From assembly GCA_963457665.1 (NCBI GenBank), contig OY735212.1, positions 1,994,397 through 2,058,396 on the forward strand: 64,000 nt of DNA, written 5' to 3'. Every line of letters starts with the position of its first letter. The first letter of the stretch is position 1. Shown here piece after piece: positions 12,001 through 17,375 of the stretch. The stretch is from Thysanoteuthis rhombus. Lineage: Eukaryota; Mollusca; Cephalopoda; Oegopsida; Thysanoteuthidae. Under the pieces are notes generated by a model. It ran no database searches. It was not told the DNA's origin and saw only the letters and a list, made by a program, of their open reading frames with translations. Both the position numbers and the translations under genes were made by a program.

Positions 12001-15000
12001 CCAGTCAAAAAGTGTATTACTGAGATGTGTGGACACATCTAACAAATCGAAATCTTTGTGAACAGAAAAGAAATATATTTTTCAAAATTACTTAAAGGTG
12101 CTGGGGAAGTAACTTCAATCAGTATAGAATAGGAGTTGTCAACCTTTTTGGCATCACTGCCCTCCTATTTAGTAAATATTCAAAATGATGCTAAAACGAA
12201 TTAGATGCTTAATATAACAATAAAAACGAACTACTTCTGGTGTTTCTTTAATGGAAGAAATGTAGAGTAGGAACATCAAATGTTTGGTGCATAATATCGT
12301 TTTTAGATATTATCAATGCCACCCTAGGATCTGGTGAGACACAATATTAAAAAAGGTTGCTATTGACTCATATTTTTTTATTGTCAATTACAGACTTGAA
12401 TAAGCAAAATCATTTACAGCCCACCCATATTTCGAAAAGCCAACCATTTTCTGCCTAGTTGCTCACTACTCACCTGAGAGTTAAAATTGCCCCCTGGTGG
12501 ATGGTATTCCCCTGATTGGAAAACCCTGGTATAGAATAACATTCCAATTTTTTGTTGTGAATTTAAGAGTTCAAGTAATTATTTGCTATTTTATTTTTCC
12601 AGGGAAAGGTCGTTATGGAGAAGTCTGGAAAGGATTGTACCATGGGGAAGTGATTGCTGTGAAAACTTTCTCTTCAAGGGATGAAGCCAGCTGGGACCGT
12701 GAGACAGAAATTTACAACACTGTTCTTTTACGTCATGACAATATCCTTGGTTACCTGGCATCGGATATGACCAGCCGGAACTCCTGCACACAGTTGTGGC
12801 TGATCATGCACTTTCACATCAACGGTTCTCTCTATGATTACTTGCAGAACACTATACTCGACCATCAGTCGATGCTTCTGCTAGCTTACTCGGCTGCAGC
12901 GGGCCTCGTCCATCTCCATACTGAAATCCTTGGCAAGCAGGGAAAGCCAGCCATTGCACACCGGGACATTAAATCAAAAAATATTTTGGTTAAAAAAGAC
13001 GGTTCTTGTTGCATTGGGGACTTAGGTCTGGCTGTTATTCATAGTCGTGAAAATAATTATCTTGATCTTGGCAACAATCCAAAAGTTGGTACCAAGCGTT
13101 ACATGGCACCAGAGGTCCTTGATGAGACCCTGAACGCAAATATCTTTGAAACTTTCAAATGCGTCGATGTCTATGCATTTGGCCTGGTACTTTGGGAAAT
13201 CACACGATGTTGCGTCGTTAATGGTAATCCTTTTTTCTTTTTTTTCTCTTTTTTTCTCTTTTTTTTTTTTTCTCTTTTTTTTTTCTCTTTTTTTTTCTCT
13301 TTTTTTTTCTCTTTTTTTTTCTCTTTTTTTTCTCTTTTTTTTTCTCTTTTTTTTTCTCTTTTTTTTTCTCTTTTTTTTTCTCTTTTTTTTCTCTTTTTTT
13401 TTTCTCTTTTTTTTTTCTCTTTTTTTTTTCTCTTTTTTTTTCCTCTTTTTTTTCTCTTTTTTTTTCTCTTTTTTTTTTCTCTTTTTTTTTTCTCTTTTTT
13501 TTTTCTCTTTTTTTTTTCTCTTTTTTTTTTCTCTTTTTTTTTTCTCTTTTTTTTTTCTCTTTTTTTTTTCTCTTTTTTTTTCTCTTTTTTTCTCTTTTTT
13601 TTTCTCTTTTTTTTTCTCTTTTTTTTTCTCTTTTTTTTTCTCTTTTTTTTTTCTCTTTTTTTTTTCTCTTTTTTTTCTCTCTTTTTTTTTCTCTCTTTTT
13701 TTCTCTATTTTTTTCTCTATTTTTTTCTCTATTTTTTTCTCTATTTTTTTCTCTATTTTTTTCTCTATTTTTTTCTCTATTTTTTTCTCTATTTTTTTCT
13801 CTATTTTTTTCTCTATTTTTTTCTCTATTTTTTTCTCTATTTTTTTCTCTATTTTTTTCTCTATTTTTTTCTCTATTTTTTTCTCTATTTTTTTCTCTAT
13901 TTTTTTCTCTATTTTTTTCTCTATTTTTTTCTCTATTTTTTTCTCTATTTTTTTCTCTATTTTTTTCTCTATTTTTTTCTCTTTTTTTTTCTCTTTTTTT
14001 TTCTCTTTTTTTTTCTCTTTTTTTTTCTCTTTTTTTTTCTCTTTTTTCTCTTTTTTTTTCTCTTTTTTTTTCTCTTTTTTTTTCTCTTTTTTTTTCTCTT
14101 TTTTTTTCTCTTTTTTTTTCTCTTTTTTTTTCTCTTTTTTTTTCTCTTTTTTTTTCTCTTTTTTTTTCTCTTTTTTTTTCTCTTTTTTTTCTCTTTTTTT
14201 TCTTTTTTTTTTTTCTTCTCTTTTTTTTTTCTTCTCTTTTTTTTCTTCTCTTTTTTTTTTCTTCTCTTTTTTTTTTCTTCTCTTTTTTTTTTCTTCTCTT
14301 TTTTTTTTCTTCTCTTTTTTTTTTCTTCTCTTTTTTTTTTCTTCTCTTTTTTTTTTCTTCTCTTTTTTTTTCTTCTCTTTTTTTTTCTTTTTTTTTTCTT
14401 CTCTTTTTTTTTCCTCTTTTTTTTTCTCTTTTTTTTTTCTCTTTTTTTTTTCTCTTTTTTTTTTCTCTTTTTTTTTTCTCTTTTTTTTTTCTCTTTTTTT
14501 TTTCTCTTTTTTTTTTCTCTTTTTTTTTCTTTTTTTTTCTCTTTTTTTTTCTTTTTTTTTCTTTTTTTTTCTCTTTTTTTTTCTCTTTTTTTTTTCTCTT
14601 TTTTTTTCTCTTTTTTTTCTCTTTTTTTTCTCTTTTTTTTTCTCTTTTTTTTTCTCTTTTTTTTTCTCTTTTTTTTTCTCTTTTTTTTCTCTCTTTTTTT
14701 TCTCTATTTTTTTCTCTATTTTTTTCTCTATTTTTTTCTCTATTTTTTTCTCTATTTTTTTCTCTTTTTTTTCCTCTTTTTTTCTCTTTTTTTTTCTCTT
14801 TTTTTTTCTCTTTTTTTTCTCTTTTTTTTCTTTTTTTTTTTCTTCTCTTTTTTTTTCTTCTCTTTTTTTTTTCTTCTCTTTTTTTTTTCTTCTCTTTTTT
14901 TTTTCTTCTCTTTTTTTTTTCTTCTCTTTTTTTTTTCTTCTCTTTTTTTTTTCTTCTCTTTTTTTTTTCTTCTCTTTTTTTTTTCTTCTCTTTTTTTTTT

Positions 15001-17375
15001 CTTCTCTTTTTTTCTTTTTTTTTTCTTCTCTTTTTTTTTTTCTTCTCTTTTTTTTTTTCTTCTCTTTTTTTTTTCTTCTCTTTTTTTCTTCTTTTTTTTT
15101 CTTCTCTTTTTTTTTTCTCTTTTTTTTTTCTTCTCTTTTTTTTTTCTTCTCTTTTTTTTTTCTTCTCTTTTTTTTTTTCTTCTCTTTTTTTTTTCTCTTT
15201 TTTTTTTTCTTCTCTTTTTTTTTTTCTTCTCTTTTTTTTTTCTTCTCTTTTTTTTTTCTTCTCTTTTTTTTTTTCTTCTCTTTTTTTTTTCTTCTCTTTT
15301 TTTTTTCTTCTCTTTTTTTTTTTTCTTGTTCTTTCATTATTATCACCAGAGGATTGTAAACAAATATTTAATCAATTTTGACTGTTTTATGTTCATTTTA
15401 ATTTTCAGTTACTTTTTTCTCAATTTTAACTGTCAGAAATAAAGAGTAAGCCTCCAGTGAGTATAGAATTCCCTGTGGAAATTAGGGACATGAGTTTGAT
15501 TCTCAGTGGAGACTTACTCTTTACTTTGGATCACGTTGTTTAATCGTAGCCATAGTATGACGGTCTGATTCAAAGTTGTGATAAAAACCACTATAAATCG
15601 CTTTGAAGTTGAAATGATTGAAGTGTTAATTTCGGAAAATTTCCTAAAATTGCATCATAGTGCATGAAATGAGAAAACTAAGTCCATTAACTTTGTATTT
15701 AACAGGAATAAAAGATAATTCGATCATTGTCTTACACAGCCTTTTGGCATCCATCATTGAATATAGAGAGACCTGGCAAAATTTGGGATCTAGTGCTTTC
15801 TGAACTTGTCTGGTTCATTAAACCACTTTATCTTCTGCTGGCCACATTCTCTCATCTGTGGAGATTCACATTGCAAGTTATGTCCTGCCATTGTCTGACA
15901 TTCTTGGTATGAGACCAGCCCATTGCCATTTGAGTTTTCTTACAGATTTTGTTGTATTAGAAGTAGTGATATTATCTTGATTTCTTTTTTTTTTTCTATT
16001 AGATGATGTATTGTCAACCATTATTAAGAAAAAAAATTTTTTAGTAGTATTTCTTTCATCTCAATTTTAGTTATTTTTTGTTGCTGCTGCTCAGACCATC
16101 CATATATGGTTGAGTAAATGTTTCTTCTAGAAACAAATCAAAATAATATTACCATCATAGGGTAGTCTGATACATGGAGTTCGTTAGTTTTTCTCTCGAG
16201 GGTTAAGGCTATGAGAACCCAATCCAGATGGAAGGATTTTTGTTGTTAAAACCAAATTTGTGTATTCAAGTGTGGAACCAAAAAAAGGGACTTTTAAAAC
16301 GGAACAACCAAGCCATGTATATTTTTCTAATAGAACACCAGAAAAAGTATATATAGACAAAAATTCCGAAAATTATGATTTAGACCCCCCCCCTCCCCAC
16401 CAAAGCCCACCTCTGTGTTTTTCTGCTATTATCCACTAACAATCCTCATCTGAAATTCCCAATTGGAGATATAATACTAAAAATAAGCAGAATTACTTTA
16501 CTTAGAGATTCCTATGAGAACAGATAGAAATAAAATCCTACAGGAATTAGGAGTTGCCTCTCCAGTATTGTAATTACTACTACTAATACTAATAGTGCAT
16601 GTGGAAACAATAGCAAATATGATGCCCAGCTATCAGGTGGAGAACGAAAGATTTGGTCAAGGACTAGATCTGATCTTCTACCAACCTCAAAAGCTTTGGT
16701 AGCTCAATTGGTAGAGCATTTGCCATACATAGGCAGACTTCAAGGTAGATGGATGCCTGTTCAAGTCTTGCATAGAGCTTTTTGAAGATCTTTCGCCACC
16801 AAAGATAGTAAAGGGTTCTATTCCTTTTTATATATTTATATATATATATATGTGTGTGTGTGTTTCTGCGTTCTGGCCCTCCTGGCCATATAGTTTTGTG
16901 TAGAGACTCGAAAATGGACATAGGTCCTCTATTAGACCTTTCTAATAATGTAGTAGAGGGGATTCATTTTTACTCTTTTAGATGTTGTCCTATGGAAAAT
17001 GCCAAGCAACTAAAATTTAAGAAATACTTATTAAACCTTATTTGTTGTATTTTTCTATCCATAGTCAACAGGTGCCTTACACAATATAAGTCTTTATTCA
17101 TTTTTGATTCTCCTTGATTTTCATTTTTTCAGTGTTTTTTACTCTTTATAAGTAATTTTTATCTGCCTTTTTCTTTTTTTAAATTTTTTTTTGCTTTCAT
17201 GTTTTGGTATTTCCGACTTTACAGAACAATAATAAGCAATTTGAATTTTTTTTTTTTTTGTTGTTGTTGCTATTGATCTTAATTCTGTGGTATAAACAAC
17301 TCCTTTTCTTACTAACCCTTTGATGCAAAAAGAATGCAATTAGAATGACCAAAGTAAACAAGAAAAAAACTTGGG

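What the first reader, a model, noticed from the sequence alone, without database searches (positions are those of the whole stretch)
13229..15327. 2.1 kb G-free polypyrimidine tract with a repeated block order inside the ACVR1 kinase intron
The + strand is C/T only except for the A of CTCTA units. Homogeneous 12-mer arrays (23 and then 5 copies of CTCTATTTTTTT) alternate with CTCT-T8 and CTTCTC-T10 arrays. The block order CTC, CTCTA, CTC, CTTCTC appears twice, suggesting segmental duplication of a repeat of repeats. Pure purine/pyrimidine mirror-like tracts can form triplex (H-)DNA and can slow transcription or replication. The strict strand asymmetry and persistent 12-bp phase in some blocks need an explanation. 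It lies in the intron between two essential kinase exons.
Basis: partly seen in the sequence, partly recalled or inferred. Interest (0 to 1): 0.7.

Follow-up and report, generated by a model that had tools for sequence, protein, structure and literature searches.

The report
Long intronic pyrimidine repeat array
A 2.1-kilobase stretch made almost only of C and T sits right after an exon of an animal growth-factor receptor gene; it looks like a long but ordinary kind of tandem repeat that grew by copying itself, whose first few bases may help splicing.

Summary
Window 13228-15327 has no G, and its 28 A's are those of CTCTA units. It holds 162 units: 79 CTC-Tn, 39 CTTCTC-Tn, 28 CTCTA-T7 (23+5), 16 others. 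CTCTA-T7 is the CTC-T9 12-mer with one T>A change, which accounts for the 12-bp phase. Neighbouring units are far more alike than shuffles, the mark of local tandem duplication. The block order repeats, but only moderately beyond chance (16/1000, 27/500; weaker: 94/1000, 97/1000, 56/200), so segmental duplication is plausible, not shown. Triplex potential is graded: mirror arms to 76 bp in CTC blocks, 12-15 bp in CTTCTC blocks, none in CTCTA blocks, which expanded nonetheless. The intron (13224-17908) splits an ACVR1/ACVRL1-class kinase; the tract starts at +5 of the weakest of five donors read here (5/9 consensus). Best reading: a compound pyrimidine minisatellite, tolerated because it holds no AG, GT or poly(A) signal, whose first tens of bases probably act as a TIA-type enhancer of that donor. 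Nearest precedent: the 2.5-kb PKD1 intron 21 tract. Species, reads and other individuals were not available.

The parts
12602..13223 (+). kinase-domain exon upstream of the intron (ACVR1/ACVRL1-class type I receptor)
   Evidence: Pfam Pkinase/PK_Tyr_Ser-Thr; PDB matches to ALK1 and ACVR1; contiguous joined match
13224..13230 (+). 5' splice site, exon AATG then GTAATCC; 5 of 9 consensus positions, T at +5; of five donors read here the only one without G at +5
13228..15327 (+). whole pyrimidine tract, no G, 28 A
13229..13702 (+). CTC block 1 (CC, C, then 16+18 CTC units around one CCTC, two CTCTC at its 3' edge); 90% in perfect mirror repeats with arms of 20 or more
13703..13978 (+). CTCTA block 1, 23 identical CTCTATTTTTTT units; practically no pure-pyrimidine mirror repeat
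13979..14201 (+). CTC block 2 (19 units); longest mirror repeat, arms 76 bp, loop 6 (13972-14129)
14202..14412 (+). CTTCTC block 1 (C-T12, 11 CTTCTC units, C-T10, 1 CTTCTC); longest mirror arm inside 14 bp
14413..14701 (+). CTC block 3 (CCTC at its 5' edge, three single-C units within, CTCTC at its 3' edge)
14702..14761 (+). CTCTA block 2, 5 identical units
14762..14829 (+). CTC block 4 (one CCTC within), ending CTC-T8 x2 like block 2
14830..15327 (+). CTTCTC block 2 (C-T11, 11 CTTCTC units, C-T10, then mixed CTTCTC/CTC/CTTC); longest mirror arm inside 15 bp at loops up to 8
15328..17908 (+). rest of the intron, mixed composition, ending in acceptor TTTTCTTGCAG before GAATC
17909..18039 (+). 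next kinase exon

Best explanation
It is a compound, G-free pyrimidine minisatellite in the first half of a 4685-bp intron. A short U-rich stretch just after the 5' splice site gave rise to CTC-T8..10 units; point changes (T>A giving CTCTA-T7) and small rearrangements (CTTCTC-T10) made new unit types, each spread locally by unit-wise tandem duplication (replication slippage or unequal exchange), and one larger duplication probably copied a CTC-CTCTA-CTC-CTTCTC segment. Homopolymer slippage varies the T runs of 8-10 but not T7. The array is tolerated because its RNA holds no AG, GT or poly(A) signal and is predicted unfolded where folded here, so it offers no competing splice site; it is removed with the intron. 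Shown: anatomy, local homogeneity, absence of splice dinucleotides, position at a weak donor. Inferred: the origin, slippage/unequal exchange as mechanism, and that the first tens of nucleotides (U6 at +8, U8 at +15) act as a TIA1/TIAR-type U-rich enhancer for the weak donor, while the rest is largely a passenger.
For: Unit anatomy and single-base relation of units. Unit types cluster: 32 switches vs a minimum of 89 in 2000 shuffles; adjacent CTC units share T length in 45 of 69 pairs vs a maximum of 42 in 2000 shuffles. T length is modal in 28 of 28 CTCTA units vs 40 of 79 CTC and 26 of 39 CTTCTC (Fisher 3.6e-7 and 3.7e-4). No AG or GT in the tract; AATAAA/ATTAAA in the intron only from intron offset 2215 on, 3' of the tract. 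In the fold of 13190-13490 everything from 13232 on is unpaired. Donor 5/9 consensus and 100% pyrimidine at +7..+46; the four other donors 6-8/9 and 50-57%. Passages: U-rich tracts within ~20 nt of the 5' splice site raise use of weak sites through TIA proteins, with an inverse relation to donor strength in most metazoans (PMC2766253); [quoted passage not shown] Short diverged tracts with similar units stand in two prokaryote-MAG scaffolds, L003 and L004, so such units arise independently.
Against: No relatives, individuals, reads or RNA data: growth mechanism and splicing effect are inferred. Five donors, placed by eye from translated frames, are an anecdote. A 2.1-kb length is not needed for TIA action (maximal effect from about nine uridines in the cited minigene), so the length has no functional explanation here. 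Duplication statistics are mixed (56/200, 27/500, 97/1000, 16/1000, 94/1000). T-length variation could partly be homopolymer sequencing error.
Confidence: 0.7

Rival explanations
1. H-DNA (triplex) element: the tract forms intramolecular triplexes that stall polymerases, drive its own expansion and damp expression of the receptor, as at FXN GAA repeats or PKD1 intron 21.
For: Perfect pure-pyrimidine mirror repeats with arms up to 76 bp, longer than in each of 20 unit-order shuffles (maximum 59) and 20 base shuffles (maximum 32). With loops up to 8, 85% of the tract lies in mirror repeats with arms of 10 or more, 46% with 20 or more; CTTCTC blocks are 100% covered at arms of 10. S1-seq shows H-DNA at pyrimidine mirror repeats in mouse (PMC9171763, passages); PKD1 and FXN precedents (passages).
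Against: The most uniform arrays, CTCTA, have practically no such mirror repeat (3-18% covered at arms of 10 or 12, from their edges) yet reached 23 copies, and CTTCTC arms stop at 14-15 bp inside their blocks; so long mirror symmetry is not needed for growth. No measurement of structure or expression.
Confidence: 0.23
2. RNA-protein sponge: the excised or nascent intron binds many PTB/TIA/U2AF-type proteins, as PNCTR does with PTBP1.
For: 651 overlapping and 201 non-overlapping YUCUYY/YYUCUY motifs in 2099 nt, against 18 non-overlapping in the remaining 2581 nt of the intron; PNCTR has 2178 and 565 by the same motifs (PMC6224606, passages).
Against: Base shuffles of the tract already give a mean of 169 non-overlapping motifs (maximum 184 in 200 shuffles), so density mostly follows from composition. 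No evidence that the intron RNA is stable or abundant.
Confidence: 0.06
3. Assembly or polymerase-slippage artefact: the true tract is much shorter or different in block order.
For: Homopolymer-rich tandem arrays are error-prone (general knowledge); T8-T10 lengths vary; the search of the source genome got no answer.
Against: Ordered blocks with distinct unit types, and flanks that join correctly to exons; random slippage during sequencing would hardly make 28 identical CTCTA units in two places.
Confidence: 0.08
4. Decoy 3' splice region: an array of U2AF-type sites without AG that delays splicing of this intron and makes its retention regulatable; retention would stay open in frame to 15440.
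For: 160 T runs of 7 or more; with the intron retained the kinase frame meets its first stop at 15440.
Against: No AG in the tract and no A outside CTCTA units to serve as branch point; no data on retention; an open frame comes almost automatically with a G-free C/T tract.
Confidence: 0.06

Closest known systems
Human PKD1 intron 21 polypyrimidine tract (2.5 kb; Van Raay 1996 seen only as a cited title; passages of PMC11696556)
   Same: Kilobase-scale pyrimidine tract inside an intron of a conserved gene; [quoted passage not shown] passage says it is absent from the mouse gene.
   Different: PKD1 intron 21 is reported to have 38 potential G4 motifs; here there is no run of three C, so no such motif on the purine strand, and T is 81%. 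Here it is a tandem array of mostly 12-16-bp units that abuts the 5' splice site.
Friedreich ataxia FXN intron 1 GAA/TTC repeat (passages of PMC10484681)
   Same: Intronic purine/pyrimidine tandem repeat with triplex potential.
   Different: Trinucleotide unit, disease expansion; here compound units with long, short or no mirror symmetry by block.
U-rich TIA1/TIAR enhancers downstream of weak 5' splice sites (abstract and passages of PMC2766253; passages of PMC2964331)
   Same: Pyrimidine tract directly downstream of a weak donor.
   Different: Mean tract length there is 10-14 nt, depending on organism; this one runs on for 2.1 kb.
PNCTR, pyrimidine tandem-repeat RNA binding PTBP1 (summary and passages of PMC6224606)
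   Same: Very high density of YUCUYY/YYUCUY motifs in tandem repeats.
   Different: PNCTR is a long noncoding RNA from an rDNA spacer, made by Pol I according to a section title; this is an intron with no evidence of RNA accumulation.

Membership tests
Tandem repeat / minisatellite array | head-to-tail copies of a short unit with local homogeneity | tested here: met
   TRF 12-bp period, 175.7 copies; clustering of unit types and T lengths beyond shuffles
Tandem repeat / minisatellite array | copy number varies between individuals | not testable with these tools
   one sequence only
PKD1-type intronic polypyrimidine tract | kilobase-scale, over 95% pyrimidine on one strand inside an intron | tested here: met
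   2071 of 2099 bases C/T; intron supported by the gap-free exon join
PKD1-type intronic polypyrimidine tract | multiple H-DNA-type mirror repeats | tested here: met
H-DNA-forming element | pyrimidine mirror repeats (sequence motif) | tested here: met
   85% of the tract at arms of 10 or more, loops up to 8; CTCTA blocks 4-18%
H-DNA-forming element | triplex formed in supercoiled DNA or in vivo | not testable with these tools
   needs S1/permanganate/BQQ-OP probing
TIA-dependent U-rich 5' splice site enhancer | weak donor with a U-rich tract within about 20 nt | tested here: met
   U6 at +8 and U8 at +15
TIA-dependent U-rich 5' splice site enhancer | TIA binding and loss of donor use on deletion | not testable with these tools
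   needs CLIP and a minigene
PNCTR-like RBP-sequestering repeat RNA | motif density beyond composition | tested here: met
   201 vs a maximum of 184 in 200 base shuffles, a modest excess
PNCTR-like RBP-sequestering repeat RNA | stable, abundant nuclear transcript | not testable with these tools
   no RNA data

The most novel reading that the evidence does not exclude
The donor of a conserved BMP-receptor kinase exon has decayed and now depends on the first units of an unstable minisatellite, so that repeat changes at the 5' edge tune receptor splicing between individuals, with the remaining 2 kb as a large binding platform for U/CU-binding splicing proteins on every nascent transcript.
Probability: 0.1. 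Interest if true: 0.6.

Novelty: new member of a known kind. Interest (0 to 1): 0.27.

Why it matters
Among the papers listed the only comparable intronic tract I recognised was PKD1 intron 21, which is tied to genome instability. This array holds blocks with long (CTC), short (CTTCTC) and practically no (CTCTA) mirror symmetry side by side in one intron, a natural internal control for whether triplex capacity governs repeat growth. It also places a weak donor at the edge of what is probably an unstable U-rich repeat, a testable link between repeat state and splicing.

Tried and rejected
Segmental duplication as proven: rejected as too strong. Unit-level self-alignment was matched or beaten in 56 of 200 block shuffles, weighted block order in 27 of 500 and longest exact repeated order in 97 of 1000, the A/B alignment in 16 of 1000 block shuffles and 94 of 1000 T-length permutations (A/B borders chosen after seeing the data).

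'Only CTC blocks have triplex potential': my first conclusion, at arms of 20 or more. I raised the triplex rival from 0.20 to 0.23 and lowered the main reading from 0.72 to 0.70 for that.

Coding reading of the long frames through the tract (985, 781, 741 and 717 codons among those): rejected; they follow from a base composition that can hardly make stops.

Structured-RNA reading: Rfam found 0 matches at gathering score in the window; the fold of 13190-13490 (z -3.99) owes its pairs to 13194-13231, exon and donor bases and the first four tract bases, the rest being unpaired.

Relatives: three CTCTA-T7 or three CTC-T9 units in a row gave 0 stretches in viral contigs; two CTCTA-T7 in a row gave 4 prokaryote-MAG stretches. 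Of these L003 and L004 show short diverged CT-rich tracts with similar units, L001 and L002 just two to three units, within the 150 bases shown on each side. I saw nothing that makes any of them a relative of the locus.

Literature: polypyrimidine + intron + tandem repeat + cephalopod gave 0 papers; strand-asymmetry (1 paper) and minisatellite (12 papers, 8 listed) searches gave nothing on point in the listing; long-tract phrases gave 19 papers, 15 listed, none recognisable from its listing as this locus or a comparable animal intron apart from a PKD1-locus paper not opened. A cephalopod source was my guess from microsatellite style: recalled, untested and not used.
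Full report
What is there. Window 13228-15327 is a G-free tract on the + strand; in 13229-15327 there are 1709 T, 362 C and 28 A among 2099 bases, the A's being those of the 28 CTCTA units. Cutting at T runs gives 162 units: CTC 79, CTTCTC 39, CTCTA 28, C 8, CCTC 3, CTCTC 3, CC 1, CTTC 1. The CTCTA units stand in two arrays of 23 (13703-13978) and 5 (14702-14761), each unit exactly 12 bp. The next longest C/T/A-only run in the window is 83 bp.

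How the units relate. CTCTA-T7 is CTC-T9 with one T>A change, both 12 bp; this explains the 12-bp phase (28 of 28 CTCTA units, 40 of 79 CTC units). T length is invariant in CTCTA (28 of 28 T7) but not in CTC (40 of 79 at the mode) or CTTCTC (26 of 39); Fisher 3.6e-7 and 3.7e-4. This fits slippage that rises with homopolymer length, or more reading error in longer runs, or recent spread of one unit; these cannot be separated here. Units of one kind cluster (32 switches; minimum of 2000 shuffles 89) and neighbouring CTC units share T length in 45 of 69 pairs (maximum of 2000 shuffles 42). That is what local tandem duplication leaves.

Repeat of repeats. The collapsed block order shows CTC, CTCTC, CTCTA, CTC, C-T11/12, CTTCTC x11, C-T10, CTTCTC twice, with an extra CCTC in the second copy. 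Shared details are suggestive: CTC-T8 before CTCTC, CTC-T8 x2 before the long C-T run, 11 CTTCTC units in both. Controls are mixed: 56/200, 27/500 and 97/1000, 16/1000 and 94/1000. I hold duplication likely, not shown.

Gene and intron. The upstream exon (12602-13223) carries a kinase domain and matches ALK1 and ACVR1 best. Joined to 17909-18039 it aligns without a gap over 251 residues to human ACVR1 (420.1 bits) and scores nearly as well with ALK1 (418.0), so the gene is an ACVR1/ACVRL1-class receptor and the intron is 13224-17908, 4685 bp. The donor AATG|GTAATCC matches 5 of 9 consensus positions and lacks G at +5; the four other donors that I placed in the window from translated frames match 6-8 and have G at +5. 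Of the five only this one is followed by pure pyrimidine (100% at +7..+46; others 50-57%). The consensus string is recalled.

Function. The tract has no AG and no GT, and AATAAA and ATTAAA occur in the intron only downstream of it; in the fold of 13190-13490 it is unpaired from 13232 on. It therefore offers no rival splice site. U-rich tracts near weak donors raise their use through TIA1/TIAR (PMC2766253, abstract and passages; PMC2964331, passages). The first bases of this tract satisfy that arrangement; the remaining 2 kb goes far beyond the 10-14-nt mean in that study. I conclude that the 5' edge probably has a splicing role and the rest is mostly a passenger.

Triplex. Perfect mirror repeats reach 76-bp arms, against maxima of 59 (20 unit-order shuffles) and 32 (20 base shuffles). 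The potential is graded (loops up to 8): at arms of 20 or more 60-96% of each CTC block, none of the CTTCTC blocks and 0-3% of the CTCTA blocks are covered; at arms of 10 or more the CTC and CTTCTC blocks are 98-100% covered and the CTCTA blocks 4-18%. Non-mirror pyrimidine repeats gave little or no S1 signal in mouse (PMC9171763, passages), and a GAAGGA repeat in FXN that cannot form H-DNA is described as stable (PMC10484681, passages). Here the CTCTA array reached 23 copies without such symmetry, so triplex formation is not needed for growth of every block; for the CTC and CTTCTC blocks (84% of the tract) it remains open.

Protein sponge. 201 non-overlapping PTB-type motifs in 2099 nt, against a shuffle mean of 169 and a maximum of 184 in 200 shuffles: a modest excess over composition. 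PNCTR (PMC6224606, summary and passages) is the model; no call bears on the stability of this intron's RNA.

Known relatives in kind. The PKD1 intron 21 tract (passages; the primary papers tried were not held) is the nearest precedent. No homologue was found: 0 stretches in viral contigs and 4 prokaryote-MAG stretches without sign of relation.

Verdict. A real, long and orderly example of a known kind; novelty low, with a testable donor-repeat link.

Noticed in passing
1-22000 without the tract: T runs of 8 or more outnumber A runs 32 to 10 (binomial 0.0009, border chosen afterwards), whereas 15328-64000 has 40 to 34: a possible sense-strand bias along the receptor gene.
   Followed up: partly
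13224-15442: If the intron were retained, the kinase frame would stay open until a stop at 15440, adding a long Phe/Leu/Ser-rich tail.
   Followed up: partly
16692-16780: A tRNA-Cys-like call with anticodon ACA inside the same intron; box-A-like and box-B-like stretches suggest a tRNA-derived SINE (sequence; box motifs recalled).
   Followed up: no
15798-15961 and 15470-15598: Pieces of the same intron match elsewhere in the window: 30529-30697 (71%), 57138-57287 (68%), 29181-29309 (73%) and, over 49 bases, 61220-61267 (86%): probably old dispersed repeats.
   Followed up: no
39331-40905: TRM1-type tRNA dimethylguanosine methyltransferase reading frame on the + strand.
   Followed up: no
54202-54522: WAP four-disulfide core domain on the - strand.
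   Followed up: no
60564-60953: Reverse-transcriptase-like frame on the - strand, RVT_1 match just under the curated cut-off (29.1 vs 29.6 bits); the overlapping frame 60283-60627 matched no Pfam family. Probably remains of a LINE-like element.
   Followed up: no
13194-13231: In the predicted minimum-energy fold the weak donor pairs partly with exon bases and the first tract bases, which might further limit its use.
   Followed up: no
L003 200-360: A Myxococcales MAG scaffold carries a short CT-rich tract with CTCT/CTCTCT/CTCTA and T7-8 units, possibly eukaryotic contamination or convergence; L004 shows a shorter, more diverged one.
   Followed up: partly
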